From Morinoia aosen (taxonomy: Eukaryota; Arthropoda; Malacostraca; Amphipoda; Talitridae): DNA of 64,000 nucleotides. A program made the position numbers and the translations under genes. Positions 6,391 through 62,154 of the stretch are shown here, piece by piece; the first letter of the stretch is position 1, and the number at the start of each line of letters is the position of its first letter. The stretch spans positions 43,498,068 to 43,562,067 of the forward strand of contig CM059566.1 in NCBI GenBank assembly GCA_030386875.1, given 5' to 3'. The notes under the pieces were generated by a model, which worked only from the letters and a program-made list of their open reading frames with translations, had not been told where the DNA came from and searched no databases.

Positions 6391-6406
6391 GAGTTGCATC
6401 CAAACT

Positions 6407-7722: not shown

Positions 7723-7739
7723 TTGGAATACACTAAGAA

Positions 7740-8556
7740 ACTATTTAATTAATAAATTTAGATTAGTAATCCTTTCATTGAGGCAAGCAACTTACTGAAT
7801 TACATATGTGGAATACTTTGTTCCACTGTTAAATCATTTGGCAGTGCTAGCAATAACATCAATTGCATTACTGGACTATTTTGGTAAGCTACTTACTATT
7901 GATGCCATATGAACAAGGATTACTAAATTAAACAATGTATATTATATTCTAAAACTTTGTGCATCTGCATGACTAGGAAATGTTTAGACATGTTGTAACA
8001 GAATAGACTATGTTAATGAAGTTGAAATATTAGCTCCTTCAGGAGTCTAAAATGTTATTATTGATGGTATTAATGCACTGCTTTCAATGCAAATATTCAA
8101 ATATTTAATTGATAATTAAATCTACTATAAGCTATCAATTAAACTTTTGACAGGTTATCGTGAATTGCTGCTACACAAAACAATCAACTAGATGAAGCAA
8201 ATCTGCAGAGCACATTGGTACCATATGAAGGAGGTCTAATTTTTGTCTTTGTGCTGCTATAAGAGGACAAACTAAAACAAAGGCAATTCTAAAACTAACA
8301 GAGAAGAAAATTAGAAACTAAACAGAAAGGAAAATTAGAAAATGAACACAAAGGAAAATTAGAAAATTAACACAAAGGAATGACAAAAACTATAGATTTT
8401 CCCTTATGTGCAAGTTGATTTTAGTAGTAATAAATATCTACCACCTCCTGCAGTTTGATTATTACTTTCTAGCCAAACAGTATAAATCCTATTTTCATTA
8501 AAAAAAATTTATTGCCATTAATAAATTCAAAAACTTCCAGTAAAATTCCAATGAAT
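7740..8556. other. No gene recognised
   Basis: AT-rich spacer between the minisatellite and the first MITE of family I. A short imperfect tandem of an ACAAAGGAAAATTAGAAA-like unit lies at about 8310-8375. Nothing else was recognised. Confidence 0.5.
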
Positions 8557-8564
8557 GTTTCTTC

Positions 8565-8953
8565 GGTAAATCTGAAGGAAAGAACAGTAATCGATTTTGT
8601 AAATTGCAATGCCTAAACATAGTTAATTAGATAGAAATAAACAAGTTTTCTTCTATGCACTTCCCGTCTGAAATGAGTATTTCATTAGTTGAAGCGGTAA
8701 ATGACTTACCGCAACTCCAGTGTTTGAAGCAGAAAGAAATTCATCAATTGCATGGTATGGCAACACTGCAATGGAATCTCTCTTCCAGCGCCCTCGTCAT
8801 CAAAGACGAAACCAAACCTAACGCTATACCTTGTAATGTAATCATTTCAGACAAAAAGTGCATAGATGAAAACTTGTTTATTTTGATTAAATCAATTATG
8901 TTTAGGCACCAAAAAGTGGGAAATCGATTACTATTCTTTCCTTCAGATTTACC
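8565..8953. mobile_element. MITE family I, copy a (389 bp)
   Basis: A palindromic, non-coding element bounded by inverted GGTAAATCTGAAGGA termini. It is flanked by an 8-bp target duplication with one mismatch (GTTTCTTC at 8557-8564, GTTTGTTC at 8954-8961). The arms contain the family blocks AAACAAGTTTTCTTCTATGC and ACCGCAACTCCAGTGTTTGA. The 134-codon open frame through it (8655-9059) crosses the inverted repeats and is not a gene. Confidence 0.9.
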
Positions 8954-20454: not shown

Positions 20455-20839
20455 CATAAGAACATCATTTTACGGCTCAGCAATTAGTCTATTACAAACT
20501 GAAAAAACAGTAATTTCTTATTCATGTCCTTTTGTTGGAAAGCGTATCCGATGTAATCTCATATATGATAGGACGTTTTATATATCAACTCACATCACAT
20601 GACGAAAAATTGTTAAGTCGAAGAGTTAAATTTTAATCTAATGTCGCATTTTCTTCAACAGCTACCATCTGCTTATGTTCCTTGAACTTCCTTCAAAACA
20701 TAATTTCCTCGTCAAGTTCATGCATGAGCGTCTTTAAATCGTTCGTAAATGAAAACTAAATTAACGACTATACACTGTATTGCAAAAAAAGGGAGACTGA
20801 ACTTCGAATTGATGGAGCTCTGCAGTTATTAATAGTTTA

Positions 20840-22999
20840 GTTACATTACATATCGCATGAAAAACCACTACTCCCTTGAAATATTTCAAGAAAAGCTATT
20901 AGACAGATGGAGTGAATTTCAAGGCATGGAAAACACCGATGATGTCAATGTACAAGTTTCGCTTTTCACCGAAAATTTCGTATCAGCTCTTAACGAATGC
21001 GCACCTTTCATTACGAAGAAAGTTAAGCCAAGAATTTCTAAATGGATAACAGATGAGATAAAACGGTTGAGCAGAGCCAAAAGAAATTTGCAGCGTGAGT
21101 ACAAACTGAATAAATCAGACAGTACGCGTCGAAAATTATATACAGATCATGAGAAGATCCTGCGAAGAAAAGTTAAGGAAGCAAAACGAGACTACTTCCA
21201 CAAAGAACTCTTGGCGGCAAAACAAAACCCTAAAAGAACTTGGGAAATCAGTAGAGAAGTTGCTCGGTATAAAAATTCAGACTGCAAAAGCACAAGTGAC
21301 AACCCCTCAAAAATGGCGAATGACTTTAACACTTTCTTCTAAAAAGTTGGCGAAGATGTTTTCAATGAAGTATCCAGGACAGTTTCAGACGCATCTACAG
21401 AGGCAAATCCGAGCGATGTTTCATCCCCAAATAGTAGCAACAATTAAGTGGAGACAACAGCCAGTTGGCGTCATAGAGATACGAAAAATCTTATACTCAC
21501 TAAAGAATACTAAAGCGACTGGACGTGATGGCATAAGCCTCCAACATATAAAAGACAGCTTCCCTGTCACAGCACCCCTTATTCGCTTGATAATAAATAC
21601 ATCTATAGTCACAAACAAGTTTCCCGATCAATGGAAACTATCCATTATTAAGCCATTAAATAAATCTGGTGGTATCGACATAGCGTCAAACTACAGACCA
21701 ATCAGTCTCCTGCCTGTTATGTCCAAAATATTAGAAAAAGTAATAACAAACCAGCTCTCGTCTTACATAGACGAGTCACATCTACTGCATCGCAATCAAT
21801 ATGCTTACAGAAGGAATACCAGTACTCAGGACTCCCTGTTAAACATAACAGAAAAAATTTACAATGATATTGACCAAAAAAAATTAACTCTCTTACTATT
21901 GCTTGATCTCTCCAAAGCTTTCGACAGTGTTGAGCATAAGAAACTTCTACAAAAAATTTCAAACCTCAGAATAGACACTCAGTGGTTTGAAAGCTACCTA
22001 CTAAACCGCTCTCATGCAGTGTGCTTGAATAACAAAATGTCATCATTCACACCAAATAATTTTGGCGTTCCTCAAGCTTCAAACATCGGCCCACTCCTAT
22101 TTTCAATTTTCCTCAATGATTTCCCCACCATGCCGGCAAACACAAAAATCTCAATGTATGCTGATGACGTGCAAATTGCTATGACAAGCTCAACAGCGGA
22201 TTTAAAAGAAACACAAGCCAACGCTGAAAACCTTCTGAGAAATCTGAAATTGTGGTATGACCATAATTTGGCCTCAAACTTAACGCAAGTAAAACGCAAT
22301 GCATTATTTTTGGATCACGGAATGCGACTAAAAATTTACCACCATTCAAGCTAACATTTGGAGACGATACAATTAAAACAGTAGATAAGGGTAAAAATCT
22401 GGGTGTTTGTTTGACAAAAAGTTGACTTTCAATTCACACGTCGAAACAATGTGCATCAAAATTTACGGAACCTTAATGTTCTTTCATCGTTTAAAGAACA
22501 CACTTGACGAAAAATCTAGATGATTAGTGATTCAGTCTTTAGTTTTATCGCGTCTGGACTACTGCAGTCTTGTGTGGGGAGATTTACCTCAATGTCGTCA
22601 GGAAGAGTTGCAAAAATGTGTAAACTTCGCCGCCAAAGTGGTATGCAAAGGAAATTTCAATAAATACGATCATGTCACCCCTCTTTTAAAAAAACTCGAC
22701 TGGATCCCAATACCGAACAGATTTATGATCCAGAAAGCTCGACGAGTATTCTCCTCTTTGTACCTCCCCCAAAGTAATGCAGAGGTGGTAAAATTTTTTC
22801 CATCTAATATCCCAAACGAAAGACCAAACCGGAGGAACGATGTTTTAGTCAGTTACCGTTCATCTAACGTGGGACAAAAAGCTCTCTCAGTTTCTGGAGC
22901 TTTTTTGTGGAACAAGCTTCCCCAGCTTATCAAAAACTCTAAAACTGGAAACGAATTTAGAGCAAATGTGTCACGTCATTTTGCATCTCTGTCATAGGG
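20840..22999 (+). pseudogene. CR1/L2-like non-LTR retrotransposon, 5' truncated, frameshifted
   Basis: This is the remains of a LINE ORF2. The first part (20857-21340) encodes the linker between endonuclease and reverse transcriptase (a KWITDEIKRL motif). The second (about 21450-22300, another frame) is the reverse transcriptase: ATGRDGI, NYRPISLLPVMSKILE, DLSKAFDSVEH, PQASNIGPLLF in place of the usual PQGSVLGPLLF, and the catalytic YADD. The third (22527-22997, third frame) is the C-terminal region with SRLDYCSLVWG. Frame changes near 21450, 22300 and 22430, plus a stop at 21340, show it is dead. The endonuclease is missing, as in usual 5' truncation. Motif order and the C-terminal tail fit the CR1/L2 group better than RTE or jockey, but the clade is inferred. 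Confidence 0.9.
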
Positions 23000-29335: not shown

Positions 29336-30901
29336 TTTGGCAACATTGTTGGGTAAGAACACAGGGTGTGTTTACATTCTGTCGTCCACAGATTCCACTC
29401 GCGAACCAGATGGCAGAAAAGCTTAGCAGCAGGAGTGGAGAGTCGGTAAGATATTCAATGTAGGCCTAGTATTAGTTTTTTATAATTTAGTGGACAGTGA
29501 ATTGTAACCCATAATTTGGGTTACCAGCGGTGTTGCTCTAAAGGCTAATCAGAGAAGGTTGTGGTTATACTGATGCGTTCTGGAAAAAATGCCATGGCTT
29601 ACCTCCTGGTAAGCAAATAGATGCACTGTGCCTTCCATCTATGTAATATTATGTTTCAACTTGGTTCAGCATCGTAGTGGTCATTGAGAAATTATATTCT
29701 GTTGTAAAATTATATTTAAGATTCTGTGTTTCATGATTTCAACATGTTTGCGTTATTCACTGCCGCATTGCAGGTCAGTGAATGGATAGTTTGTTGATAG
29801 TAATACCTCTATTTTTGGAATATTAGTAGGCCCTATTTATAATATGCTAAATTCAGATGAATTAGAAATTATTAATCTGGATCAATTTATAGTGTATATT
29901 AGGATGCTAGAAAATAGCCTAGTTCTTATCGGTTTTACAGCAGGAAGTACATTGGTTAATGTTCATTCTACATTTGAAGATGGAGTATTGTTAGGGGTTT
30001 GTGTGTATTAAATTAATTGCTGTCCATAGTCAATCAAGTGCATAACTTTTTGAAACATTTAGAGTATTGCTAGCCTAATTTAAAATCAGTGGAATGTTGA
30101 TTTACCAAGTATGATAACACTTAATCAGAAATGTATCTCAAGTACCTAAGTAACAAGGCTGCATGAAGGTTATGCAAGAATGTACCTAGTGTTATTTATG
30201 CTATTTCAGTTAGGCGAGGGGATTCATTGACTTAAGCACCTGTTTGCATGGGCTGAGATTTTACCATTGTGGTGTAGAAATGGTGTAGCAAACTAATCCA
30301 GACTGTATGTTCTGCTCCAGTCAATTTCTTATTCTATCCTGTTCTAAGCATCCAGGCAAGTTTTTTTCATAATTTTTCTTATTTCATGAACTTGTACCTT
30401 GTATTTATCAAGGAGCTTAAATGTATGGAGACACCTGACTATTTCACTTCTCTTTCCCTTGACATGAATAGTTTCTTATTTTTATAGAACACCAGTCCAC
30501 ATCTCTTTATTTGAATTAAGAAAGGTGAAATGAAGTGAAGGGCATAAGGAATAAAAAAATCAATCTTTTGAGTTGATTTGGCCAAGCTTGTACCGCAGAT
30601 ATGCTAACGACACACTTTTTGCTGGTTTCGGACAGACGGACGCAGCTCTTATTATAGTATAGATTAAAATTACATATCATGTAGTTGAAAGCTCAAATTT
30701 ATTCCTCATTCTATTTGTAATCAAAATGTAACTGCTTAACTTAACCTTATATGCTGGAAATAAGTTCAAAGAAATACAGTGTAGTTCTATAAATTATTCA
30801 AGTTACAGGAACTGTTAATATTTGTTGGCTAGTGTTATTTAAAGAGTTCATTGTGAAAGCTGCTTGTATATGTATTGATGCTTTTATGGCACTTTCAGTT
30901 T

Positions 30902-30972
30902 CTGTGATGACTAATATTTCGCCCCTATCTGAACACTCCTGTAGATACGGTGCTCGATTGGTCTTTCTGATG
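30902..30972 (+). ncRNA. C/D box snoRNA type A, copy 1
   Basis: Box C GTGATGA at 30904-30910, D' CTGA at 30929-30932, D CTGA at 30967-30970. The D' guide TTTCGCCCCTAT is complementary to 28S AUAGGGGCGAAA. The D guide GATTGGTCTTT pairs, with one G-U, with AAAGACUAAUC just downstream in the same 28S segment. By the D+5 rule the methylated bases would be the second G of AUAGGGGC and an A in AAAGAC. The target resembles that of yeast snR60 and human U80 (from memory). It lies in host intron 1, about 72 nt before the acceptor. Confidence 0.92.
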
Positions 30973-31927
30973 ACAGACTTTGTGCAGGAAACATTATATC
31001 ATACTTTGCCATACTCATTGGTTCTTCTTTTTCCTTCTTTGCAGGATGAAGTGATGCCGTTTTCTACTAAAAATGATCTCCCGGGAAAGGTGAGAATAGT
31101 AAAAGGATGCCTTGAATGATAGGATGGAATATAGTGAAATATAAACATCAATCTGTTTAGTGAATTGTTCATTTTAATTGGTGAAATTTTGCTCGGATAT
31201 ATGATAAAATTAAACAGAGAAAGGTGTTCATAAGAACTTGAAATCAGAACTTAACTACCAGGGTAGTTTATGAAGCTGTTGTTGAACCTATATCCATTTG
31301 TTGTATTGCATTCACTCACTGGAAGGTTAGAATTACCTCTGAATGTTTACCTACATCTTGCCTATAAAATTTTTTCTTATTATTTTTGTTGTTTGAAGGT
31401 TATATTTTACTTTCCTACTCTCAATGGAGAGTAGTATGTAGCCTCTTCATCAAAATATGCATCCTCTATTTTGATTGAAAATAAAATAAATTGTAACTTG
31501 AATTGTCTGGAGGAGTTTTTTAGGGAAATCTATGGGCAAGTTGATGTTTGAAATACTAAATGCACCTAAAGCTGAATTGTCGAAAAAAAAATCCTTCAAG
31601 ACTTAGTCATACATGCAGAATAAAGGTCATGGGATTGAGATTATTTTTGTGTTTTCTTGTTATACAGTTGAATATTGAGGATACAAAGTCAAATCCTGTT
31701 GATGTGATTGTCTCTACTACCTGCTGTGTGTATAATAAATGGAATAGATGACCTCTATGGTCCTAGATACCTAATTTTGATTATATTATATTTGTATATT
31801 AACTGTGTGCTGACACTAGAAGCAATAAAAAGCTTTCAAAATACATTTCATTCACAGTATTTTTCAAGTTTCTTGATATTTTTATAAAAATAGTGGCATT
31901 CTTGAAGGATTGAATTCCCAATTTACA

Positions 31928-31998
31928 ATGTGATGACTAATATTTCGCCCCTATCTGAATATCTGTGTAGATACGGTGCTCGATTGGTCTTTCTGATA
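31928..31998 (+). ncRNA. C/D box snoRNA type A, copy 2
   Basis: Box C at 31930-31936, D box CTGA at 31993-31996. Both guide blocks are identical to copy 1. The variable linker between D' and the second guide reads ATATCTGTGTAGATACG. It lies in host intron 2, about 63 nt before the acceptor at 32061. Confidence 0.92.
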
Positions 31999-32972
31999 CT
32001 GTTATAGGCTATAAACTTGACTTAGTTTTTTTTTTTTTACTAACCTCATCCATACTTGCAGAATGAAATGGCATGAGGTGGTTCTCATCTGAACAACTTC
32101 CAGAGAAGAGGTGAGGCTACCTAATTCTTTGTGTAGTGTGATTGATTTCATTAGGTTAAAATATATCAGTAACCCTTGTTGCATTTCTAACATCTATGTT
32201 GTTAAAGGTGTTTATGAAACATGTGCTTAGAAATTGACGAAACGAGTGTCGAAAAATGTTAATTACTCAGTTGGAAAGGATTGCTTTCGAAAATTGATTA
32301 GCAATGCACAGGTGTCAAATTATACTAACCATACCTAAGAACTTGCTGCTGTTGCATTTGGGTCCTTTTTTTTTTGTATTTTATCCTTCTTTATAATGGT
32401 GTAAATTGCTGTGAGAGTAATATTTAAATTTAAAAAAATACTAGTTTGCTTCTCATGATTCGATGAATGAATTTTATGACTTTTGTAATACTTGCAGTCA
32501 CTTGAGAATAATAATTTTATTTTCAGCAATGTAATTTATAGTGTTTGATAATTTCTTCCCAAAGGTGTGAAAAGTTGAGGCCGATTTCTGTTGATACCCC
32601 AGCAACAAAGCATCTGTAGACAAATAATCCTAATAATTTACCAAGTCCTTCTAGTAGGATAATGCACTTGGACAAAAAAATACATGCTGAAGATAAGTGC
32701 CCATTTAGCAAAATTTTTTCGATTCTTTTGGTATTGAATTAGTATATTTTTTCTTCAACTCAAATGCTTTGTCAATACAGATAACTGATCATCATAGGTT
32801 TCAGGATATCAATTCTGACTCATTTATGCTTGATTTGTCTGCACCTACACTTTTTGCTTCAATAGTGTTCTAGTGCCCACCAAAGCAATGCGGGGGTTTC
32901 CTGACTGTCAGATGTACAACTGTACGTAATTGCGGTAGTGGAACTGATATGATTTTCATTTAATCAGTTTTT

Positions 32973-33043
32973 TCGTGATGACTAATATTTCGCCCCTAGC
33001 TGAACAATCTTGTTGAAACGGTGCTCGATTGGTCTTTCTGACA
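32973..33043 (+). ncRNA. C/D box snoRNA type A, copy 3 (altered D' guide)
   Basis: Box C at 32975-32981, D box CTGA at 33038-33041. The D' guide ends CCCCTAG instead of CCCCTAT, so the guide base next to the D' box no longer matches 28S, while the D guide is intact. It lies in host intron 3, about 65 nt before the acceptor. Confidence 0.9.
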
Positions 33044-33563
33044 AGGTATACAACTACGTGCTCAACATAGCTGTCTTCAACTTTCTAATAGATTTTCCTT
33101 TTTTATAGGTTGCGTACTTCGAAGCTCGTTTGATTCAAATGAAGATGGCTCATACGGTAAGGGATCATCGTGGTAAAATGCCAAAGAGAAAGTTTGTTCT
33201 GTTCCAAGTTTACTGTCTTTTTTTTATTTTTTTTTTATTCTTGACTTAAAATTTAAGTCTGTTAAATGAATTCCATCATTGTTGTTTTGCTGTGACAGTT
33301 TAGCAGTTTAAGTTGACTAGCTGTGCGGTTATAATTATAATTTCTGTGCTTTCATTATAGAAGCATCATGACAATTTTGTGGCTTTCCACTAGTTACCGA
33401 GTATCGTAACAGCTAGGTTCCATTTGCTTTGAAAATTAATCTTTTTGCACCTAGCAATGGATTATGTGTAGCAGTCTTATGTATGAGCAGCTTTTGCTAA
33501 CCGTTAGGTAAATTGAATTCGGATTTTAGGAGTTCATATTTTAGTGGAATAAAGGTAAATTTT

Positions 33564-33627
33564 TCGTGATGATATTTGAAATGCTGATATCAATGTTGAC
33601 CATTCATTTCAGTGGGTTCTGCTGATT
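33564..33627 (+). ncRNA. C/D box snoRNA type B, copy 1
   Basis: Box C GTGATGA at 33566-33572, D' CTGA at 33584-33587, D CTGA at 33622-33625. The regions before D' (TTGAAATG) and D (ATTTCAGTGGGTTCTG) are identical in copy 2, so both look constrained. I could not place either on 18S or 28S rRNA from memory. It lies in host intron 4, about 63 nt before the acceptor. Confidence 0.85.
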
Positions 33628-34071
33628 TTGAAATAGGTGATCGAGTATACCTCACCGTGGCTCTCATGTAAAGCCAGTTCTCTTTTGCAGGTGTGTGACG
33701 TCAGAATTGAAAATTTGAGGCACTCCTTGATCTCAAAGAGCAGCTACTACCTTCGTTGTGGCCACATGTGAATCCTTGATTAACCATGGAAGTCTTTGTC
33801 AGGTATGGTAAAAGTCTTGTATAACGAATTTGCTAGTGTTTACGAGTTATTTTTTTATTTTGATCGTACACGTCCTGGAAAATTTTTTTAAATGATTTAA
33901 CGATAAAAAATCTCCTAGTATGTAGGTAGAGCAACCTTGTTCAATCCCAATTAGTCGTCAATTATTGACCAAGAAGGAAAAAACTAATGAATTTTTTTAG
34001 TTAAATATTTAAGGGTTCCCGTTTAAACTTTAAAACATGCGTTAATAATAATAGCCCGTTCTTATGATGAA

Positions 34072-34125
34072 TTAATTTATCACTATCTTTCGTCTGAGCT
34101 TTTTGATGCAAATCTTGTGCTGACT
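34072..34125 (+). ncRNA. C/D box snoRNA type C, copy 1
   Basis: Box C ATGATGA at 34074-34080, D' CTGA at 34094-34097, C' TGATGCA, D CTGA at 34120-34123. The D' guide TCACTATCTTTCG can pair with 28S CGAAAGAUGGUGA (one G-U), the conserved segment near that guided by yeast snR39 and human U32/U51 (from memory). The D side is not conserved between the two C copies. It lies in host intron 5, about 70 nt before the acceptor. Confidence 0.85.
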
Positions 34126-34396
34126 GGTTATGATTTCATTTTAATTATCGTGATATTTAGACATTTGCCTAATTCCACTTTTTCTGGTTTTCAAGGAAGT
34201 GTCAACCCCAACTCGTTGCATCGTGGGAAAAATTAAGTTTCAATATGGAGACCTGGCTGAACAAGTAAAAGGTAAGCATTAGTATGAATTCAGCTGGTTC
34301 AATTCTGTATGGTTCGTAGTCTCGAATTCTTGATTTTTGCAGAGAAAACTAGAGCTTTTTGTATTTGAGACCTACATAATGAGTTAGCGAAGTTTT

Positions 34397-34467
34397 TCAT
34401 GATGACTAATATTTCGCCCCTATCTGAACATTCTTGTTGAAACGGTGCTCGATTGGTCTTTCTGACG
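34397..34467 (+). ncRNA. C/D box snoRNA type A, copy 4
   Basis: Box C ATGATGA at 34399-34405, D CTGA at 34462-34465. Both guides match copies 1 and 2. The linker TTCTTGTTGAAACGG is like copy 3, so copies 3, 4 and 5 form a subgroup apart from 1 and 2. Host intron 6. Confidence 0.92.
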
Positions 34468-35335
34468 TAAAAGTATAACATTTTAAAATTCGTGGAGTGA
34501 ACTTGGTAATAAATCTATTTATTTCTTCCACAGGTAAAGTACGACACGCAAGCTGGTTCCAGGATTCAAGTGGAGTCGGTATACTTAGTGAGAAATGAAT
34601 AGAATTAAGCGTGGCTTCCTTACTGATTTCACGTTAGGTGGTTCTTCAAAGTTTCATTGTGTCGAGTCTCGCTTTAACTTGTTTTCATGTTTCTAATTCA
34701 TTCATAAGCATGAACATTCATTTCAATTCACTGTTATTTTATTTGTTAATGCTGAGTTTTTACTGAGTACTTGTCATTGTCCTATGCCTAGAGTCGTGTT
34801 GTGCCCTGTGGCTCATCATGCTAAAGTGCATCGGAGAAAAAGTGCCATCGTTGTCCTTATTGTTTCGGTAGTAATGCTGTTAATTGACAGTGAATGGCGA
34901 CAAATTTTACGTACTGCATAATTTACCACAGTTTTAATTCTATGGCATGCAGAGCAAGTATCACTTGACTAAATCTAAATTACTGCGGTCTTGTCTAAAG
35001 TAGTGTTGAAAATGCACCGGGGTTGTTCTCGGAAAAATAGGGTTCTATTGACTGTGAATCAGTATTGTACCATGAGATTGATATTTGTTTGAAAATATCC
35101 TTACGCAGTTCTATGTACGTCAATTTAGACGTTATTGTTTTCAATAGCATTTATATGGTGTTTAAATCTAATAAATTCTTATTCTTGACAGGGTTTTCTT
35201 GCAAATGCTGGACTTGGCATAAGATGTATCGGCATAAGTCATGGTAAGTAGGATGAATACGTCAAAAACATCACTACTTGAGCTAAATATCCGATAGTGT
35301 ATTTTCATTATCTTAAAAATTAAAAAACTTTCAAT

Positions 35336-35399
35336 CCATGATGAGACTTGAAATGCTGATAACAATGTTGACTACTCATTTCAGTGGGTTCTGCTGACT
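35336..35399 (+). ncRNA. C/D box snoRNA type B, copy 2
   Basis: Box C ATGATGA at 35338-35344 and D CTGA at 35394-35397. The TTGAAATG and ATTTCAGTGGGTTCTG pre-box blocks are identical to copy 1. Differences are confined to the C-D' spacer and the linker. Host intron 8, about 68 nt before the acceptor. Confidence 0.85.
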
Positions 35400-35739
35400 C
35401 TTGACGTGTTATGTAAATTTGAGTCTTCGTGGTGCTGGTTTTGCAACTCAAGCTTTTTTTTGTCCAGGTGTGACATGGAACTTCACAAATTTTCGGGCTC
35501 TCGTTTTTGTCTCACGGATGGAAGTGGAGGGTGGTTGTCCCCTTGACTTCTTGAAACCGGATGAGCTATGAAGTCAATAATGATTACAGGTATGATTTTG
35601 AATCACACATCTTACGGACTTAGCCTCCAAAGGTTTTTTATTTTACCCAATGCATTAGAATTGTCTTCTCCGCTCAATTTTACGGGATCTGTTAGAGATT
35701 TTAAAGAAAAGATATTTATCCTCGTTAATATTTATCGAT

Positions 35740-35855
35740 ATTTATCCAACCATTCCCAATTTTATTCGCAACATTTTGATGCAGATTATTTACTGATCGA
35801 TCAAATTTCATGGAAATTACAAGTGATGCTTGATAGGTATAGGTTAGGTTAGCAG
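35740..35855 (+). ncRNA. Possible decayed type C snoRNA relic
   Basis: The block ATTTTGATGCAGATTATTTACTGATC and the following GATAGGTATAGGTTAGGTTA resemble the 3' half and downstream flank of type C copy 2 (36688-36775). No box C or D' is preserved, and no functional acceptor pairs with it. It may be a dead snoRNA-exon module in host intron 9. Confidence 0.35.
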
Positions 35856-36687
35856 AAGTTTGGTAATGTCGACGGAATGTTTTCATGGACTCAGGTTATT
35901 CTGTTTGACATATTATCAGGATAGGGTGGATTAGGTTAAGTTTTGTTGTGGAATTTGTAAGGTAGTGTTGACCAGGTCCACCTAGCATGACAATGGCATT
36001 GTTCGTGGAATTTCCACAGGTCTTGCTATTGTATTATTAATCTTGGAAATTATCATTAAGGCGGACAACCCAATCAATTTAATTTGTTGACCCGAGTGTT
36101 CTGAAATTTGAATTGCAGTACATTTAATATTGCAAAAAGAAACATTTGCTCCTGAACCTTTTCGATTTTGGCTATAGTTTTTGAGAGAATGGGAAATGCG
36201 ATTTCTGACCTTGTTTTCTTGAACATTTCCTGCTAGAAAAAAAAGCTAATTTAGAATCCTTGTAACATTTCTGAAACTTGAGTTTCGATTTTTTTTCCAC
36301 AGCTAAAGTGATAAGTGATTTATTAACTTTGTTTTCATACAAACATAAATTAAAAAAGGCAAATTTAGTTTAAGAAATGTTACAAGGTTTCCAAAACGTT
36401 TTTTAGCATGAAAACTCGTTGACTTTTATTCCTGAAAAAAATATCAAATTTTTTAATTTCTCGAAAACCAAGGCCTAAGTCAAAAAATTTCAGTAGCCAT
36501 TGTGTTTCTTTTTAAACATAACTTTACGATAGACCGCTATTAGTACTAAACATTAAACAATTTAGTTGGAATTTAGAGTTTTAATGAAGGGTATCTGATT
36601 TGATAAGACAATTTCTGTATCCATTTCTTTAACGTTCTAATGACTTGATAGATCTGTATTGCCTAAGCTATAGATTAAAATTCACTC

Positions 36688-36750
36688 ACGTGATGATTTT
36701 ATTTTCACTATCTTTCGTCTGAATATTTTGATGCAGACCTATAACTGATC
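36688..36750 (+). ncRNA. C/D box snoRNA type C, copy 2
   Basis: Box C GTGATGA at 36690-36696, D' CTGA at 36719-36722, C' TGATGCA, D CTGA at 36745-36748. The D' guide TCACTATCTTTCGT is identical to copy 1 and can pair with 28S CGAAAGAUGGUGA. Host intron 9, about 67 nt before the acceptor at 36815. Confidence 0.87.
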
Positions 36751-36940
36751 TGTTGATAGATGTAGGTTAACTACTGTTATTGCGACTCTTTCCTAATTAG
36801 TTGGGATGTTTTCAGGCAAGTGTCCGCCCAACTCATCGCGGCTGAGAGCTGTGTTGTTGCGATCCTCTTCAAGTTGAGGGCCGACAGCGTCAGAGCCTTT
36901 GTGTAACGTCCTACAATTCCCTCAATACTTGCGCACACAA

Positions 36941-36990
36941 AATCCAGCGCACACAAAATCCAGCGCACACAAAATCCAACGCCTGTATAC
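36941..36990. repeat. 16-bp tandem repeat, three copies
   Basis: The unit CGCACACAAAATCCAG is repeated about three times, the last diverging. It lies within the inferred long exon 10 of the snoRNA host gene. Confidence 0.85.
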
Positions 36991-37276
36991 CAGACTTGTC
37001 CAATAAACTACTACAATGGATCCACCATTTCTTGTCTCGCAAGCTGCTATTGGGGTGGATCACTGTGATAACCAGCAAGTCTGAACAGGTACTTGCCTGT
37101 TCGGTGGTATACTATGCTATCCACGTTTGCTTGATTGAATCCATCCACTCGTCAACTCAATGTTCGGCGCGTATTCCATGAAATACAGATTTTATGTGAG
37201 CACGGCTCAAGTGGGGGATTCAGTTAGAAGCATCTTGACACTTCGAAAATAGCTATAGTCGGTGTTTGGAATGAAT

Positions 37277-37347
37277 TCGTGATGACAATTATTTCGCCCC
37301 TATCTGAACAGTCATGTTGAAACTGTGCTCGATTGGTCTTTCTGATG
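37277..37347 (+). ncRNA. C/D box snoRNA type A, copy 5
   Basis: Box C GTGATGA at 37279-37285, followed by CAATTATTTCGCCCC (CTAATA in the other copies). D CTGA at 37342-37345. Both guide cores are intact. Host intron 10, about 68 nt before the acceptor at 37415. Confidence 0.92.
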
Positions 37348-37805
37348 AAATATAATGTGAATATGTTTATCAGATTCCCAGGCTTCAGAATTTACTTGCC
37401 TCTTTTTGTTCGTAGGGTTTACACGTCATGGAAGTCTGCATTCGAGGTACACAGGATTGCTCCGTGTGTGGTGAGTAGTGCAGTATTACTTTTCATGTGA
37501 AAAGTACATGTTTGTTAGTACAAAAGGTGAATGTAATGGAGAAAGCGCTTTTGTCATTTTTTCTGCGAATGTCGTGCCTTCGACCGTTATTTCCGAACGT
37601 TTCCTATTGTATGCTATAAGCCATGAATATTTCTCTGGTGACTTTTGGTAAATTGCGGTTGTAACATTCACTATTGTTTCTCCTGTTACAGATCATGCCC
37701 CCCGCCTCTGGACCTGCGACGCGCGTCAAGTGTATCGTCGATTGAAGTATTTCTAAATTATGAGCTGATTACATGTACTTACAACTATCACAACTCATCG
37801 TGAAA

Positions 37806-37811
37806 AATAAA
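37806..37811 (+). terminator. Polyadenylation signal of the snoRNA host gene
   Basis: AATAAA lies in the last inferred exon, about 115 nt after its acceptor at 37691. It fits the end of the snoRNA host transcript near 37830. Confidence 0.6.
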
Positions 37812-38016
37812 TATAATTTACGAAAATTGCTTTTAACGTCCCTTCATGAAAACTATAAATCCAACGTAATTAATCCTACCCAATGTATTAGCGTCGATTT
37901 AGACTACATAACCTATGCTGTGCAATTGATTAGGCTATTCCATTAAAAAAGATTTGCTTCTAGGTCGATAACAAATTAGGTAAATGAATCTCCGAATAAT
38001 TATGCCCAGTCTCCAC

Positions 38017-39332: not shown

Positions 39333-42300
39333 TTAAAATTTCATGTTGTGGATGAAGCGCTTTCCTCTGAGCCCGAACTCCGATCGGAGATATTTGACGA
39401 GAATCTTCTTGTCCTTGCGGGTCTTGATGGCAGCGATGAGCTGGCGGTCGATGGATTTCTGGTCCGCCACGCGCTGCGGTGTGGGGCCCTTCTTCGACTG
39501 CAACAATAAAAAAGTGAATGTAAAAAACAAATAAGAAGGCTTTAAGGCTTTTTCTACCAACCAAATGTTCAGAACAAAAAAATGGAACCACATTTTGAAT
39601 GAAAAGCACACACCTAACGAACTAACGGATGGATTTTTTGGGCTTCACAATTTTTCGAAAACTACGATTTGAAATCATAACTAGAGCACAATTTATATAG
39701 TCCATCATGCGATTCTCATCAGTTAACTTCATTCTACACGAAAAGCTCCCGCAGCGTAAAAATTTCTCACCTTATCCTTGGTAGTGAAAATTTCTACTTC
39801 AGCTGACTTCTTGCCCTTCTTTGGCTCCTTGGCTGCCTTGAAATAGGCATCATTGATGTTTTTGGGGATCTTAACTTTGTCCATGTCGAGGCGGACACTG
39901 GTGGCGATTAAATTTTTTTGGCCCATGCGGCGCATGGGTACGCCATTTACAGCATATGGGCCAGTAACGAGGCACAGACCAGTTTTCTTCAGCTGCTTCA
40001 GGAACACAACTCGCTTGCACTTGTAGCGACCAGCCAGCATGATGCAAACAGTGCCGGGCTTGAGGCTGCTGCGCAGCTTCAGATTACCGCGGGTGCGGTT
40101 CACCTTGGGCCTGCAACAACACATTTTCATTTTAAACAAACCGAAGATAATTCAGTGTTGCCTTCAACTTCAGCACCGAGACTGGCTCTATCATTTGAGA
40201 AAAGAAAAGACCCCACGGAAAAGACACGTACCTGTTACATCAAAGAGTAAATTAAAAAAATTAAAATAGACTAGTTACCGATCAATTTACAAATTATTTC
40301 AACACCTCAACACGATATATAGTCTACAAGAACAATGGGTCACTGAAGATGAATAAAAGAATTGTATAACAAACTTGTCATCTACACATGATACTTTAAC
40401 ATTTACCACAGCTCGCCATGTAATACCTCAGGGCAAGAGCACGCAAAATTGATGCTGCCATTTATCAAGCACAGATAACTCATTTTGAACTAGTAATTTT
40501 TTTTAGGTTGTGCTGTTAATTCCTTCTACTATCTCGAAATAATTTACGTTTAATGCCTTCTAAAATTGAGCAGAATCACCTGGATCCCTGAGCTTCATGT
40601 TAGTACAATTTGGTAATGTTTTAAAAAAATATCAGGCACAATTCTCAAAGTTCTACACAGAAATTTATTATCCCTACGAAATTAATGGTGGATATGAGGA
40701 AAAAATGTATAACCCATATTATTGCTTTTTGTATTGACTTATGCATGAGCGATTATTTTATAATATATATATTTAATACAAGAAATACGTAATGCGATGT
40801 GCCATTTCTACGCTTGCAATTTGCCATAGGTGGAGCTCTACTTACTAGGCCAAGAAAATGAACGATGCACTCACTTGAAGTAGTTTTTGCTCGCCATTTT
40901 CCTCATGTTGAGCTGAGTTTCATACACGTGACGCATCTTTACGACGCTGTACCGGTGGGGGCGCTTAGCCTGCATGGCCTCCTTCATGGTCACTTGCTTG
41001 CCATCCTTTGCCTTCTTCTGGGCCAGAGCCAAAACCTTGGCACGCACCACCTGGGAAAAATACACAAATAAATATACATAAAAAACAACTTGCCAGAATC
41101 GCTCACTTCTACTATTATACCAAGAAAAAATTGATAAAGGTACAACGTAAATCTAGAAATTCGAACATCTAGCCCACTCCCTTCCCGAGAATTAAAGCAA
41201 GCTGTAAAAAAAGTTTTGTTGACAGACTTTTCTATGACCAAAACCTCTGAAAAATATCCGATTTGACAATATAGATATTATCACCACAGATTCAAATCTA
41301 AAACAATTTCCAAATGTATAAGATACTAATAAAAGAGAATTTAAAACGAGAACACGAAGCAAGAACACCTAGGACGGCAAAGACGTAAATCAATGAAAAC
41401 TGTCATATGAATGATACCACAATGAAGCATTAAGAATAAGGAAAATTAAAAATACCCTAAAACAGTTGAAACAAGCAATAATTAATCCATTGACTAATAA
41501 ACTATAATGGAACTTTAAAATTTGAACCCATCTACAGTTCAGAAAACATAAGCTACATAAGGATATTTCTAAAGGCTTTCCTTCTCAAGATAATTGAAAA
41601 TTTAGTAACACCAACAATAAAAAGCACAAGTTTCTGAGAGTATTTTGATCCATATAAAATGAATATTTATAAACCAACCTATGATGAACACACTCGTGTC
41701 TCCCAAAAAAAAAAAAACAGCCATCACTAGTTTCAAGCATGCTACCCGCCCTCACTTAACAGGTTTGAAAGTTCACCAACTAATTGGCAGCAACAAATAA
41801 CATGATAGTTTTCACAAAAGATATGCAAATAAGTGACTCAAAACAACTTATGTTTAGTACTTGTGTTACAGAAAAAATATTTGCAGATTTTCACCATGGA
41901 AACCCACTCATTTACGAGCTGATTTTTTTCTGCACCCAATAATCACAAACCGCACTTTCACCACTTTGTCCGCAAATGGTTAAACCAAACTTCAATATTC
42001 AACTTGAATTTCAAATCAATTGTTAAGTTATTTTGAAAATAACGAACATTAACTGGGTCATGTCTTCACTTAACTTATAGTTTTTAATGAAAATTGAGTT
42101 TATAACTACTGGTCGGTCAGCATAATTTTAGAAAATCCCCTCCGTGGCCACCGATGGCGCACGTTGCAGTTCAAGTGTTAAGCAACAGGCAAGTTTTAGC
42201 TACAATATCTGCACTAACATACCTTGCCTCGCTGGGTCTTAGCAGACATCCTGATCTTGCGGGACCTCTTGTTCAGGCGATGCCTGATGGCCCGAATTTC

Positions 42301-50075: not shown

Positions 50076-51234
50076 CGCGTGGTCATTCTTATTTGTTAAC
50101 CATAATTAATAGGTTCTCTAGATGGGTTGAGGCCGTGCCTCTTCCTGATACCCAAACTGAGACTGTAGCTCCCGCTTTCATGAGTAATTGAATTTCCAGA
50201 TTTGGGGTTCCCTTAAGTGTCACGCAAGACCGGGGATCACAATTTACCTCCAAATTCTGGAGTGAGCTTAGCGCCGCTTTAGGTTGTGCAAACACCAGTA
50301 CTACCGCTTATCATCCGCAGTCAAATGGACTTATCGAGAGAGTCCACAGAGATTTAAAGAGTGCATTGCGTTGCCTGAATTGCAGTCACGACTGGACCGA
50401 CAGACTTCCAGTAGTATTGCTGAGCATTCGGAATTTGCATCGGCAGGATCAGCAGTGCACAGCAGCAGAAATGTTGTATGGGAAGACGCTTCGCCTCCCG
50501 GGCGACATTGTTGACCCAAAACCGTTGCCTGAATTTTCATCTGCTGACCGTTCCGCATATGTAACCTGTCTCAAGGATTGCATGCGTCAGATCAAGTATG
50601 TTGCTCCACGAATACCTCAGACAAAAGACAAACTTGATCCTGCTTTGCAGCAGTGCACACATGTGTACGTCCGTAATGATAGCATCAAACCAACTCTCAC
50701 ACGCCCGTATGATGGCCCATTCAAAGTATTAAAACGGACGCCAAAGTATTTCGTCCTTGAAAGATCTGGTTCACCCGACCCTGTGAGCATAGATCGATTA
50801 AAGGTCGCGTATACCTCCGATAATAGTGTGATTTCTAACTCTTCATTCTCTCCACAGAACTTCCTTTCCACTGAGACTCGATCATATCGTCCACCTCAGT
50901 TTCCTCAGTTGGCTGCATTGTTGCCTAGTCAACTTGAGTGTAATCCTTTCTTTGTGCCTGTATCTTCAAACCCTACCCCAAATCCTATCGCAGACTCTAA
51001 TTCTAGCTCTCTTAGTAAAACAGCGACAAGTGTGGAGAGATCAGACGAGACCGCTGCAGTAACTCCTGTACCAAGAACTCTTGCTGATCTAAATTTGCAG
51101 ACCCGTTTGGTGAAGCTTCCCCGCTCAGTAACATTTTCCGACCGCCAAACCCGGCATGGTCGCGTAGTTCGAACTCCTTCCCGCTACAAATGGTTGCAGC
51201 GGGTGGACCTTTCGGTCTGCGCATTGGGGGGTAA

Positions 51235-53080
51235 TGTAGCATTAGCTACAAAGTGTAAAATTCTAAAATTTCTCATTAGCACTTAAATAGCATAATTATT
51301 GACATTAAAAATCTTACTCTAAATTATTATTAATAATTTTCTACTTATAATTAGTAATCCTTGAAGTTTTTGTGTAAATGCATAACATATAAAATAACGG
51401 TCGACATTTTCGAGGTGAAGCCTCTGAAGTTGGCAACACCGCGCGGGGACGCTTTGTTTTTGAGCGTCACTCTCTCGTTCGTCTTTAGCTTTTGCATTAC
51501 AGCGTTCTTGTAAGTGAAAGAAATTAAGTGTTCAAATAGAGCAAACCTGGTAAAGTATATCGTGTCATTTCTTAGAGTGCATTGTGTTTAAGTATAAGGA
51601 TCTGGTCAGTGTCGTGCTATATATATATATATATATAAACATGTAAATAGTCGTAGGAGTCGTAGAATAGCATGGCTCATTCCAAGTGCTATCTCAACAT
51701 GACGTAGCGTAAATTTTGCGTGTCATGTTCATTCTAGTGTCAAGAGTATAGTATAGATGTTTAACCACGTCTTTCTCCTTGCTGAAAAAAAGCATATACC
51801 TGCAGTTGTCATTATGATATTGAAACTCGCTCATCAAATTACTTCGTGAGAGCGCACGGTGGATTTGCCGGCGTTCTTGCGGAAGATGGCGGAGCGTAAA
51901 CTGTTGTGTCATTTCATTTTTATGTTCACTGTATTATGTTTTGAATATTTTTCTTTTGCTGCAAGAGATACGTTTAGTGTTTCTTTTCTCAGTGTAATTG
52001 ACAGATTAATGAATTAGGACTGCTTTCTTTTTTATTTCTCGTACGGATATAGATATATTATAGAGTACGAAAATTATGCATTCATATTCTTGCATTTTTT
52101 AGCTGTTTCGTATTTCAGTTAAATTCCACGAATCATGGTGCTTAAATCACAGGTATTTTCCATAATTCCACAAAAATAAAATAACAGATTTTTACTGCTC
52201 TAAAAATCACAAGTCTTGTACTGTCATGCTTATAGTTAATTCAAGCATAAAGGAACAGCCATTGCCAGCTGGTAACCTTTCTATTTTCTTCCTGAGCCTG
52301 TAAAGAAATTAATAGCTTTGAGTTAAATCTATGGAAGAAGTTCAGGGTTTTCTCCGTGATGGGAAATTTATCATTGCAGTGTAGGGATTGTCAGTTGTGG
52401 AATTTTTCCTTGATGCCTCTTCGAGAACCTTCTCATCCAGCGTCTTCGACTATTGCAGATCCTCGACGGCACCAAACGCCACAACACACATTCCCTGGGC
52501 CTGAGCTTTACCAGTTGTAAATTCACGGGCATATTATCGCTCACTAAACCATCGAGTTACACCACGTAAATTGCCTATCAGTGACGTGAGACGGTCTGAC
52601 CTTTGGTCATATATCACTTTGCAATCACTTGGTTCGGAGCTAGTAGAGCCTAGTATATTACGACAAATGGCTAACTAATCTACCGCTCAACCAACGACAA
52701 CTTGCTTTTTACATCGCGGAATTATTCTAAAGTCTGAACCCATAAATAGTGACTCATCCACACGTCACGGTTGGAATTGATATTCTGTCAGTCGCTAAGA
52801 TTTAACAGACTGTGAACCTCCACAAACACACTCACTTACACCTGGCCAACATCATCGCTCACCGGACCTCGCCTGCAAGGATTTCCCCATCTAAGAGAAG
52901 ATCGTCAGAAGTCAAGCACGCCCTCGGTCATCACGGCTTCCTCCAATAAAAAATTCGAGCTGAGTTATCCCATGAAGTGTCTTTATTATCTCTCTCTTGC
53001 AATTTCGAAAAACACTATTGAGAAAACGTTTAAGGTTGGATGTTAATAACTAACCATACCCACCAATCTTAACATGTACA
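51235..53080 (+). mobile_element. Gypsy 3' LTR (about 1.85 kb)
   Basis: Starts TGTAGCATTAGCTACA immediately after a polypurine tract. It matches LTR A at 17047-18925 along its length, and ends near AACATGTACA, where similarity to LTR A stops. Landmarks: a TA microsatellite at 51620-51640, GATGGCGGAGCG at about 51886 and AATAAA near 52947. Long for a gypsy LTR. No 5' LTR was found nearby. Confidence 0.85.
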
Positions 53081-59310: not shown

Positions 59311-62126
59311 CTATCTATAAAAGCTATTAGGAAGCGTTCTGTAAGTTGGCCTGCCACTCCAATTAACGGCAGGCAAGTTATTCAAGAACTGCATTAACGA
59401 GGAACCGACTGCGGGACCTGACACCTGTCGAGACGATGCGTAAGGAGGCCTGGTACGAGGACGAATAGGAAGATTCAACGGCAATGGATTCGACCGAAAT
59501 GCGGCACCATTACTATAACCGAGCGCATGTTGTGGTTGTATGCCAGGAAATTTGGCTTTTGCATTTTTATTTGAGTTCTGAAATCGGAAGTGTTCGAATG
59601 TAGACGGGTTTGGAGTGTATAACGAGTTTTCATACTGCTTAAATGGTTTTTCTTGTCTATAACTTGCTGTGTGACGTTTTCCATGAGTGTAAGGAGATCT
59701 TGAATACGGCTCTGCTAGCTGCAGGGATGAGAAAGATTCTATATCATTCGGTGCAAAATTGTCGTTATTTCGGAACTTATGAGAATCAGTTTCATGTGAC
59801 CCAGTGCCAAAGAACTCGGGAAGATCGGCGATATTTTCCTCCACATGAAAGGTGTCTCCACCTTCATTCAGTGGTCCATGCGGACTGTGACTGCCTTCTT
59901 TGATTCTGCTGTGCTGATTTTTAGCTCTTCCTCCTGCGTTACTCTCATAGAAAGAGTATACCCCACCGTGACCATGTTCAGCAGAGAACTCATGAGATGG
60001 TTTGAATGGAGATCGATCATAGTTACTGGGATGGATATTTTGGCCATGGTGATGAGAACCAGAATTACCAACAGATGTTTCGAGAGAATGATCAGAATGG
60101 GAGGAGGTTTGTGACGCTCGTTTGGAATAAGGGAGAGCATGGTCAGCTGGCCGGGAACTATGGGGACCATGAGGACCATGATGCCCGTCTTCATAACCAA
60201 CACTCTTATGATCACCATGATTGTAACGTTGGTCCCTTATTGCGTTGTGGTGTCCATGCTGGTCATTACCTGAGTAACTGACGTGGCTGTTATCCCCACG
60301 GAAGTTGCGTCCGTCATCGTAGTCGTCTCGGTGATGATATTCGTGGCTGCTACCACCGTGGTGGTCATCTCGAGTGTCACTACCGCGATAGTTGTGGTGA
60401 TCTTCGTTTTGATCATTGCCTCCGTGATACTGATGATGAGGTGAGTGAGAAGCATGGTCATCGTAGTTTGATTTTTTAGGAGAATAGATCGTTTGCCTAT
60501 CTGAGTGGTAATAATTATCTTTTTCACCACCTGGGTTGTGGATTTTGCCTTTTCCGGTAGAGTGCTGATCATTACCGTAAGGCGAGCTTCCTGAATATGA
60601 GACATGAGGGTCCTTAGTTCTCTCTTTGTCGTCATAATAGTGCGTTTTCTCTGTGTTGCTCGTACCACTGCTGGTATACGGCGAGTATGGTGATTCAGAA
60701 ACGATGTCCGTTGGATGAGGGTCCGAAAAAGAGTAAGATTCGTGGTTGATGTTGATGCCAGGGTCTTCATACTCAGAATACTGTTGTGTTTTCACGGGAG
60801 GTTTGTGTTCAACGGCGTTTTTGAATTTAGAAGGGGTATAAGGGGAGCGAAGATGATCGGGAGACCCCTGGGACTTTTGAGGATGCGTTGAAATGAAATC
60901 TTTATTAAAATCATCAACAGACTCGTAGAAGCTAAATTTATGGAAGCCAGTTTCTTCAGGATGAATGTTATAAAGTTGATCTGTTGGCTTTCTTACCTGG
61001 TGTTCGTTAGTTTCATCATACACGCGTGTGCTATCTTGGAAGTAATAGTCAGGTCTATCGTCCTCGTCGCGTCGTAGCCCAATGGGACTATATCGATAGC
61101 TGCTAGATTGCTGAACGGAATCTTCTGCACTGTCGTATTCGTTTTGAGATTTTTCTTGGAAACTCCTTTCCTTGACGACAGGTTTATTGGTTTCGATGGA
61201 CGAAGCATCATCACGTCTAGGAGAAAAAGACCTGGCGGAATTCTTTTTGCTATCCATTCCAGGATTATGGTCACTGACATTGGATTGTACACGGAAATGC
61301 GATCGTATTTTTTTCTTCAAAGGTTTACTTTCATCGGGAGATCGACGGAATCTTCCTCGCCTGAAGTCCCCTTGTGTGTATTGGATTTGGTCTTTGGATG
61401 ATGAGCCATGAAATGAGTCGTCGAAGAATCTTTCGTAGATGGAAGATGCTTCGCGTGCTACTTCCTTAGCTGGGCGAGTACGAGCGAATTCTACTAGATC
61501 ATCCTTTAGATTTCCGTAGAGCCTCTCGTCGAACTGAAAATGGAAAAAAGTCTTCAATATTGAGGAAGTGAAAAATTAATTCAGAGGAAATTATAGTTCT
61601 ACTACTTTCAGTTAGATTTGAAACACAAAATTTGTAATACTAAAAAATGAAAGGAATCACAATGCGAAGGAAAAACTCTCCCTAAGTTTTGCATCAAACC
61701 GAAAATATCGAATACACGGACAACCAGTTCACAACGGACAACCAGTTCACAAGGACTGAATAATGTGCAGCGTAAATGCGTACTCACCTGCAACACTTGA
61801 CCGTAGGAGGGACTAGAAGTACCATCTGCTCCAGGTAGCGGAGCGGCAGTTCTCAGCACGCTGGCTGCCGGCAAGTCACGATGCCCCAGAAAGGAATTTT
61901 GAGAAAGCTTCAGCGGCCGCCTGCCTCCTGCATCAACATCCAGCGCTTCATCCTTCGCGCCTCGCGCTGTTTCTTGAAGGGGAGAGAACACGTCCGCCGC
62001 GGTGGGAAACTCTTTGAAATTGTCGTCCCCAGGAGTGGCAAGAACGATGGCGTAGGTGGGTGGTCCCGCAGCCACGACTGAGTGAGCAGCAAATGCTGCT
62101 AGCAGTAAAGGAACAACGCCCCTCAT
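59311..62126 (-). CDS. Secreted histidine-rich protein, two exons (about 853 residues)
   Basis: Exon 1 is 62126-61788 (113 codons, donor CAG|GTGAGT). Exon 2 is 61533-59311 (acceptor TTTTCAG), in phase 0, stop TAG at 59313-59311. The N-terminus has a signal peptide: MRG, a hydrophobic run of about 15 residues, and cleavage probably after VVAA near residue 20. Exon 2 begins FDERLYGNLKDDLVEFART, a possible short conserved segment. Residues of about 415-640 are very rich in His, Asp, Gly, Ser and Tyr (HHHGQ, DDHHGG, NDQHGHH). The C-terminus is Pro/Arg-rich and basic. No enzyme or structural domain is recognised. Low complexity and secretion suggest an extracellular, cuticular or metal-binding matrix role, but this is inference. 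Codons in the His region are regular and the 740-codon exon is open, so I regard the gene as real. Confidence 0.88.
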
Positions 62127-62154
62127 GTCGCTGGATCGCTCTCAGCTGGTCGGC

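What the first reader, a model, noticed from the sequence alone, without database searches (positions are those of the whole stretch)
29345..37830. snoRNA host gene built by module duplication: A-A-A-[B-C-A]-x-[B-C-A]-x
Nine C/D snoRNAs of three types sit one per intron, about 62-72 nt before each acceptor. The B-C-A block occurs twice, each time followed by an intron with no recognisable C/D snoRNA. The exons next to matching snoRNAs also resemble each other at their 5' ends, so whole snoRNA-plus-exon modules were copied. The layout is directly readable; the duplication history is inferred.
Basis: partly seen in the sequence, partly recalled or inferred. Interest (0 to 1): 0.75.

Follow-up and report, generated by a model that had tools for sequence, protein, structure and literature searches.

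The report
Duplicated snoRNA host gene, rRNA-methylation guides
This looks like a non-coding gene whose introns carry nine small guide RNAs of three kinds, which by their sequence should direct methyl marks onto ribosomal RNA at four long-known sites; it seems to have grown by copying intron-plus-exon blocks, an ordinary way for such genes to grow.

Summary
A strict C/D-box scan finds nine candidates on the + strand of 29,345-37,830, all with an inner D' box, none on the other strand. Each lies alone in a predicted GT-AG intron, 65-74 nt before the acceptor. The spliced RNA has no ORF beyond chance.
Pairing with this genome's own rRNA assigns targets. A is the fly Me28S-G1083/snR60 guide (28S G1083 and A1092 equivalents), C the Me28S-A982 guide. 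B, without an Rfam family, pairs over 13 Watson-Crick pairs with the 18S site of snR41/U62. B and C guides fit rRNA letters that depart from the consensus.
The duplication reading needs a change. Downstream similarity links A3-A4, B1-B2 and C1-C2, not A4-A5, so the better unit is A-B-C, not B-C-A-x.
It is a new member of a known kind (Uhg/gas5-type host genes). Expression was not testable; genome-wide copy counts for A and B did not complete.

The parts
29345..37830 (+). non-coding snoRNA host gene, 12 predicted exons and 11 introns, spliced length 1117 nt
Evidence: GT-AG at all 11 introns; longest ATG ORF 39 aa (405 of 500 mononucleotide shuffles reach it); exon GC 0.457, intron GC 0.334; AATAAA at 37806, one of 11 AATAAA between 28.8 and 38.3 kb.
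30904..30970 (+). A1: C/D snoRNA, snR60 / Me28S-G1083 type
   Evidence: (RF00528, 33.3 bits, below the 48-bit cut-off)
31930..31996 (+). A2: C/D snoRNA, snR60 type
   Evidence: (29.0 bits)
32975..33041 (+). A3: C/D snoRNA, snR60 type; closest to A4 (3 differences in 68)
   Evidence: (37.5 bits)
33109..33156 (+). exon after A3, similar to the exon after A4
   Evidence: score 24, z 4.1, 2 of 600 shuffles
33566..33625 (+). B1: C/D snoRNA; D guide pairs with 18S at the snR41/U62 site
   Evidence: no Rfam family
33691..33802 (+). exon after B1, similar to the exon after B2
   Evidence: score 38, z 4.4, 1 of 600 shuffles
34064..34123 (+). C1: C/D snoRNA, Me28S-A982 type
   Evidence: (RF00535, 45.0 bits, cut-off 49)
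34196..34271 (+). exon after C1; its start and the intron tail align with the C2 module (34065-34214 with 36691-36834, 72%)
   Evidence: E 6e-9; z 8.3
34399..34465 (+). A4: C/D snoRNA, snR60 type
   Evidence: (39.8 bits)
34534..34578 (+). exon after A4
   Evidence: similar to the exon after A3
34579..35191 (+). intron x1, no recognisable snoRNA
   Evidence: one weak SNORA3 match at 34780-34905 (19.7 bits, cut-off 51, E 2.8) judged chance
35338..35397 (+). B2: C/D snoRNA, 92% like B1; D guide identical to that of B1
   Evidence: no Rfam family
35468..35589 (+). exon after B2
   Evidence: similar to the exon after B1
35757..35885 (+). relic of a further C module in intron 9 (part of the snoRNA and its intron tail; no exon predicted after it)
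   Evidence: third-best hit in 64 kb, E 9e-4; tail against C2 tail: 0 of 2000 shuffles, 0 of 461 sliding controls. The register of the snoRNA part differs.
36690..36748 (+). C2: C/D snoRNA, Me28S-A982 type
   Evidence: (34.1 bits)
37279..37345 (+). A5: C/D snoRNA, snR60 type
   Evidence: (41.0 bits)
37471..37691 (+). intron x2, no recognisable snoRNA, no CTGA at all

Best explanation
A dedicated, non-coding RNA polymerase II gene of the Uhg/gas5 kind. Splicing frees introns, and exonucleases trim each to one C/D guide RNA (inferred from known biogenesis). The guides then direct 2'-O-methylation: A with its D' box to the 28S G1083 equivalent and with its D box to the A1092 equivalent; C with its D' box to the 28S A982 equivalent; B with its D box to the 18S snR41/U62 adenosine. 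The gene grew by tandem copying of intron-plus-exon modules. Most likely (about 0.6 on its own) a block A-B-C was copied (A3-B1-C1 and A4-x1-B2-C2), A1, A2 and A5 are further single copies, and one more C module has decayed inside intron 9. Shown: boxes, splice signals, lack of coding, pairing with the genome's own rRNA, downstream similarity of three module pairs. Inferred: transcription, processing, methylation, order of events.
For: Scan and controls. Best Rfam match at each A is RF00528 and at each C RF00535. Perfect duplexes with own rRNA: A D' 12, A D 13, C D' 13 and 14, B D 13 pairs; 0 of 480 control guides before CTGA elsewhere in the window reach 12 (maximum 10). Target spacing of 101 and 9 nt (positions 7211, 7312, 7321 of L007) equals fly 982/1083/1092 (family names) and, for the 101, chicken A1459/G1560. 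The B target, with G at +11, T at +37 and G at +54, equals chicken 18S A551 (snR41/U62), G562, U588, G605. Both C guides differ from the RF00535 consensus where this 28S differs from its own consensus, keeping the pair. In A, 1 of 38 box-and-guide columns varies against 12 of 30 others (p 1e-4). Downstream similarity. C relic.
Against: No expression data. All seven Rfam matches lie below the gathering cut-off, and the default Rfam scan of the window gave none. With a looser pairing score that counts G-U, 1 of 100 shuffled guides equalled or beat A D', A D, B D and C1 D'. Terminal stems are weak and no fold stands out. In B (p 0.10) and C (p 0.12) boxes and guides do not vary significantly less than the rest. 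For intron tails alone the best pair is an unlike one, A4-B2 (z 4.4), then C1-C2 (3.9); B1-B2 has -0.3 and A3-A4 0.3. For the 80 nt upstream of the snoRNAs the best pair is A2-A5 (3.5), and the three linked pairs have -0.2 to -0.6. Similarity of A3-A4 exons rests on about 26 aligned columns.
Confidence: 0.85

Rival explanations
1. One reading: one tandem duplication of a block B-C-A-x.
For: The order B-C-A-x does occur twice. With A at both ends the phase of a tandem copy is hard to fix from order alone. x1 and x2 exons have z 2.0-2.5.
Against: A4 and A5 share nothing downstream (z -0.3) and x1 and x2 do not with their intron tails (z 0.0), while A3 and A4 do (z 4.4). A3 and A4 snoRNAs differ at 3 of 68 places, A4 and A5 at 7.
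Confidence: 0.2
2. Only the snoRNAs moved: single guide copies entered introns of a host gene already there (retroposition or conversion), and the exon likeness is chance.
For: For most A pairs, and for B1-B2 in the intron, the similarity stops near the snoRNA ends.
Against: C1 and C2 align over 152 columns through intron tail, acceptor and exon start (E 6e-9); B1-B2 exons align over most of their length; the C relic keeps its intron tail.
Confidence: 0.1
3. Gene conversion among copies has mixed the array, so that closeness of A3 and A4 tells about conversion and not about which block was copied.
For: A3 and A4 are 96% alike over 74 nt, then similarity falls sharply. B1 and B2 share an unchanged 22-nt guide-plus-D-box stretch.
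Against: Selection on guides explains the same pattern in A, where 12 of 13 variable columns lie outside boxes and guides.
Confidence: 0.2
4. A dead or unexpressed array.
For: No expression evidence; one C module is decayed.
Against: Splice signals present at all 11 predicted introns; perfect guide pairing with present-day rRNA including changed letters. The boxes are intact in 9 of 9, but they were the means of finding them.
Confidence: 0.04

Closest known systems
Drosophila DmSnR60 a-d (Me28S-G1083) cluster in the mfl/Nop60B 3' region, once called dUhg6 (PMC1821038, passages seen)
   Same: Tandem isoforms of the same guide, one per intron, about 70 nt before the acceptor; D' and D guides to G1083 and A1092, both methylations seen there by reverse transcription; joined by a second duplicated small RNA
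   Different: Here five A copies, alternating with guides for A982 and the 18S snR41 site. No dyskerin motif was found in this window (search for eight recalled strings), so the host looks stand-alone
Drosophila Uhg genes (PMC4430873, passages seen)
   Same: No recognisable ORF, up to 16 introns, one snoRNA per intron; only two introns of the described Uhg genes code for none
   Different: Here two of eleven introns of one gene lack a recognisable snoRNA, and three module pairs are alike beyond the snoRNA
gas5-like host gene of chicken and human (PMC2653536, passages seen)
   Same: Short exons, tandem snoRNAs, two U80 (snR60 kind) copies in neighbouring introns of the chicken gene; [quoted passage not shown]
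   Different: Other guides beside U80; exons not compared here
snR41 / SNORD62 18S guide (site spacing in PMC2653536; Neurospora 18S-Am538 row in PMC2780460, passages seen)
   Same: B points to the same 18S adenosine
   Different: B has no Rfam match; common descent not shown

Membership tests
Box C/D snoRNA | C box RTGATGA and D box CTGA, with inner D' | tested here: met
   9 of 9
Box C/D snoRNA | Guide next to D or D' pairs over a long stretch with a target | tested here: met
   A both guides, B D guide, C D' guide, 12-14 pairs; B D' and C D guides have no target above shuffles
Box C/D snoRNA | Terminal stem | tested here: inconclusive
   3-4 of 5 pairs at the best of nine registers; folds of six of the nine unremarkable
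snR60 / Me28S-G1083 (RF00528) | Match to the family model | tested here: inconclusive
   Five copies at 29.0-41.0 bits, E 4e-5 to 0.04, below the 48-bit cut-off
snR60 / Me28S-G1083 (RF00528) | Double guide to G1083 and A1092 | tested here: met
   12 and 13 Watson-Crick pairs, sites 9 nt apart
Me28S-A982 (RF00535) | Match to the family model | tested here: inconclusive
   45.0 and 34.1 bits, E 2.5e-5 and 0.008, cut-off 49
Me28S-A982 (RF00535) | D' guide to A982 | tested here: met
   13-14 pairs, 101 nt before the G1083 site
snR41 / SNORD62 | Guide to the 18S adenosine of snR41/U62 | tested here: met
   13 pairs plus one G-U; residue spacing agrees with chicken A551, G562, U588, G605
snR41 / SNORD62 | Common descent in sequence | tested here: not met
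   No match to a family of that name at B1 or B2 up to E 10; that these families are in Rfam is recalled. B is not filed as a member
Uhg / gas5-type non-coding host gene | Several introns with one snoRNA each | tested here: met
   9 of 11 predicted introns
Uhg / gas5-type non-coding host gene | No long ORF in exons | tested here: met
   Longest 39 aa, 405 of 500 shuffles reach it
Uhg / gas5-type non-coding host gene | 5' TOP start and spliced transcript | not testable with these tools
   No transcript data

The most novel reading that the evidence does not exclude
The snR60/U80 guide has been amplified again and again inside host genes (four copies in fly, two in chicken, five here), and here its neighbours B and C have kept pace with an unusually changed ribosomal RNA, guide letter for target letter. 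The array would then be a dosage device that evolves with a fast-changing ribosome, and this genome a place to watch guide and target change together.
Probability: 0.3. Interest if true: 0.5.

Novelty: new member of a known kind. Interest (0 to 1): 0.33.

Why it matters
It gives an annotated host gene in a lineage with much-changed rRNA, with a readable record of how such genes grow (alike module pairs, single extra copies, a dying copy). The matching letters in guide and rRNA give testable cases of guide-target co-evolution, and B adds a guide that the public RNA library does not recognise.

Tried and rejected
H/ACA snoRNAs in the x introns: a weak SNORA3 match and a fold with z -1.95 were followed by a crude hairpin-hinge-hairpin-ACA scan that found 0 on the + strand and 3 on the - strand of the host; rejected. 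Decayed A, B or C copies in the x introns: no signal (of its 70 comparisons the strongest was C2 against intron 9, z 3.2, 2 of 300 shuffles, while C1 against intron 9 had 1.4). Host as part of a dyskerin gene, as in fly: none of eight recalled motif strings occurs in six frames, a test that split exons could escape; a search of the genome for the dyskerin domain did not complete. Searching the genome with RF00528 gave no match although the window holds five copies, so that search is blind here. A DNA search with the C1 module found only itself and not even C2, so it sees near-identical copies only. A target for the D' guide of B and the D guide of C: none above shuffles. Dating of the copies: not attempted. 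In one search the C-exon starts and the A4-exon end were off by 1-2 nt; one search repeats the exon test with corrected ends, and B1-B2 and A3-A4 stay on top. Literature on host-gene duplication in insects: in the listings no title or abstract start describes this locus; some searches looked for guides, sites and copy evolution.
Full report
What is there. A scan for RTGATGA followed by CTGA gives nine places on the + strand of 29,345-37,830, each with an inner CTGA, none on the - strand, and three on both strands of the rest of the window; shuffled host sequence gives 0.24 on average and 3 at most in 1000 (list). The order is A A A B C A B C A. The spans are A 30904-30970, 31930-31996, 32975-33041, 34399-34465, 37279-37345; B 33566-33625, 35338-35397; C 34064-34123, 36690-36748.

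The host. Twelve predicted exons joined by eleven GT-AG introns give an RNA of 1117 nt without an ORF beyond chance (longest 39 aa; 405 of 500 shuffles reach that), with exon GC 0.457 against intron GC 0.334. Each guide lies 65-74 nt before its acceptor. The fly paper PMC1821038 (passages seen) reports about 70 nt for the DmSnR60 copies and cites the same rule in vertebrates. PMC4430873 (passages seen) says of fly Uhg genes that each of up to 16 introns codes for one snoRNA and that only two introns code for none. The present gene has a guide in nine of eleven introns.

What the guides are. With relaxed thresholds the best Rfam match is RF00528 (Me28S-Gm1083; 29.0-41.0 bits, cut-off 48) at all five A copies and RF00535 (Me28S-Am982; 45.0 and 34.1 bits, cut-off 49) at both C copies. 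B1 and B2 match no family with a score near its cut-off. At the default cut-offs nothing in the window matches.

What they target. A 28S string with two mismatches allowed is found at 25 places of this genome, all 25 with the same letters; without mismatches a longer string found none. One rDNA unit was fetched (L007); Rfam places 18S at 424-2752, 5.8S at 4734-4883 and 28S at 5920-8933. The 18S is 2329 nt long. A blind search of each guide against this unit gives: A D' to G 7312 (12 Watson-Crick pairs), A D to A 7321 (13), C D' to A 7211 (13 in C1, 14 in C2), B D to 18S A 1020 (13, plus a G-U). Of 480 control guides (20-mers before CTGA elsewhere in the window) none reaches 12 pairs; the best has 10. 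Of 2000 shuffles of each guide none reaches the A and C values and one reaches that of B. With a looser score that pays for G-U, 1 of 100 shuffles equals or beats A D', A D, B D and C1 D', and none C2 D'. The D' guide of B and the D guide of C find nothing above shuffles. The A and C target strings are present in all six fetched 28S-bearing loci (one of them, L005, lies inside L007) and the B target string in both 18S-bearing ones.

Check of the sites. The distances 7211-7312 (101) and 7312-7321 (9) equal fly 982-1083-1092, and chicken 28S A1459-G1560 is also 101 (PMC2653536, passages seen). The B site has G at +11, T at +37 and G at +54, as chicken 18S A551 (snR41/U62) has G562, U588 and G605. 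PMC2780460 (passages seen) also lists snR41 with U62A/B for Neurospora 18S Am538. So the three guide types point to four known methylation sites. For fly, both A sites were seen methylated by reverse transcription.

Guide and rRNA letters. This rRNA departs from the Rfam consensus inside two targets: 18S AGAACCCACUGAAG where the consensus reads AGuAuCaAuuGGAG (five letters, four of them at places in lower case, which vary in the family), and 28S GAUAGUG where it reads GAuGGUG. Both C guides read CACTATC where the RF00535 consensus reads CACCAUC, so the pair is kept. The B guide fits the changed 18S letters, but its own former state is unknown since it has no family. A third departure, 28S GACC for GACu in the A D target, needs no change of guide, because a G pairs with either. 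This compares one genome with family consensuses and is no tree-based test. In A, one of 38 box-and-guide columns varies among the five copies against 12 of 30 others (p 1e-4); in B (2 of 37 against 5 of 24) and C (6 of 38 against 8 of 23) the difference is not significant.

How it grew. I compared the stretch from each D box to the exon end for all 55 module pairs. The top three are C1-C2 (z 8.3), B1-B2 (z 4.4) and A3-A4 (z 4.4); A4-A5 has -0.3 and x1-x2 0.0. For exons alone, 66 pairs: B1-B2 4.4, A3-A4 4.1, C1-x2 2.7 (an unlike pair), C1-C2 2.6, x1-x2 2.0, A1-A2 1.3, A4-A5 0.9, so values near 2.5 mean little. Against my reading: for intron tails alone the best pair is A4-B2 (4.4), an unlike one, with C1-C2 second (3.9) and B1-B2 (-0.3) and A3-A4 (0.3) at nothing; for the 80 nt before the snoRNAs the best is A2-A5 (3.5) and the three linked pairs show nothing. 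C1 and C2 align through intron tail, acceptor and exon start (152 columns, 72%, E 6e-9). A3 and A4 differ at 3 of 68 positions, A4 and A5 at 7. The simplest history is a copied block A-B-C with x1 gained in the second copy or lost from the first; I give that part about 0.6. Gene conversion between A3 and A4 cannot be excluded.

A profile of C1 and C2 has its third-best hit in the whole window at 35757-35799 (E 9e-4, next 0.025), upstream of C2 in the same intron. The stretch behind it aligns with the intron tail of C2 up to the place of the acceptor: score 39 against 19.4 for mononucleotide shuffles, 0 of 2000; 0 of 461 sliding controls. The AG is gone at that place; another AG follows about ten bases on, and I predict no exon there. 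The tail is the firm part: for the snoRNA part two alignments give different registers. I read it as a dying further C module.

Whole genome. The C1 module as DNA finds only itself, not even C2, so it sees near-identical copies only. The C guide with its box, one mismatch allowed, has two exact matches, both here, plus one 1-mismatch place without a C box (the backwards control also has one). The same counts for A and B did not complete.

Verdict. A good, ordinary example of a known kind, with a revised duplication unit, four assigned target sites, one guide without an Rfam family, and guide-rRNA letter matches worth a comparative test.

Noticed in passing
window 39336-40151, - strand: Two exon ORFs of ribosomal protein L6 (PF01159, E 6e-14 and 7e-11), a ribosomal protein gene lying tail to tail with the host gene.
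   Followed up: partly
window 37002: An AATAAA lies inside the long exon after C2 (36816-37088); an early end there would drop A5 and x2, as alternative ends do in the fly mfl gene.
   Followed up: no
L007:424-2752, 4734-4883 and 5920-8933: 18S of 2329 nt, a 28S of 929 bits on a 3401-position model, and a 5.8S of only 51.4 bits (cut-off 42): much-changed rRNA.
   Followed up: partly
window 20836-22997, + strand: Reverse-transcriptase ORFs in broken frames; one of 52 scanned ORFs matches RVT_1 (E 1e-31), by its text most likely 21110-22351.
   Followed up: no
window 50192-51286, + strand: Retroelement integrase remnant (rve, E 0.004, below cut-off).
   Followed up: no
window 6308-7748, - strand: A tandem repeat leaves three overlapping long open frames of repeated LPSVSACPQFRLALSFG units.
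   Followed up: no
window 59311-62141, - strand: Long ORFs without a Pfam match up to E 0.01 (both); the longer one, rich in H, S, D and Y, also has no solved-structure match.
   Followed up: partly
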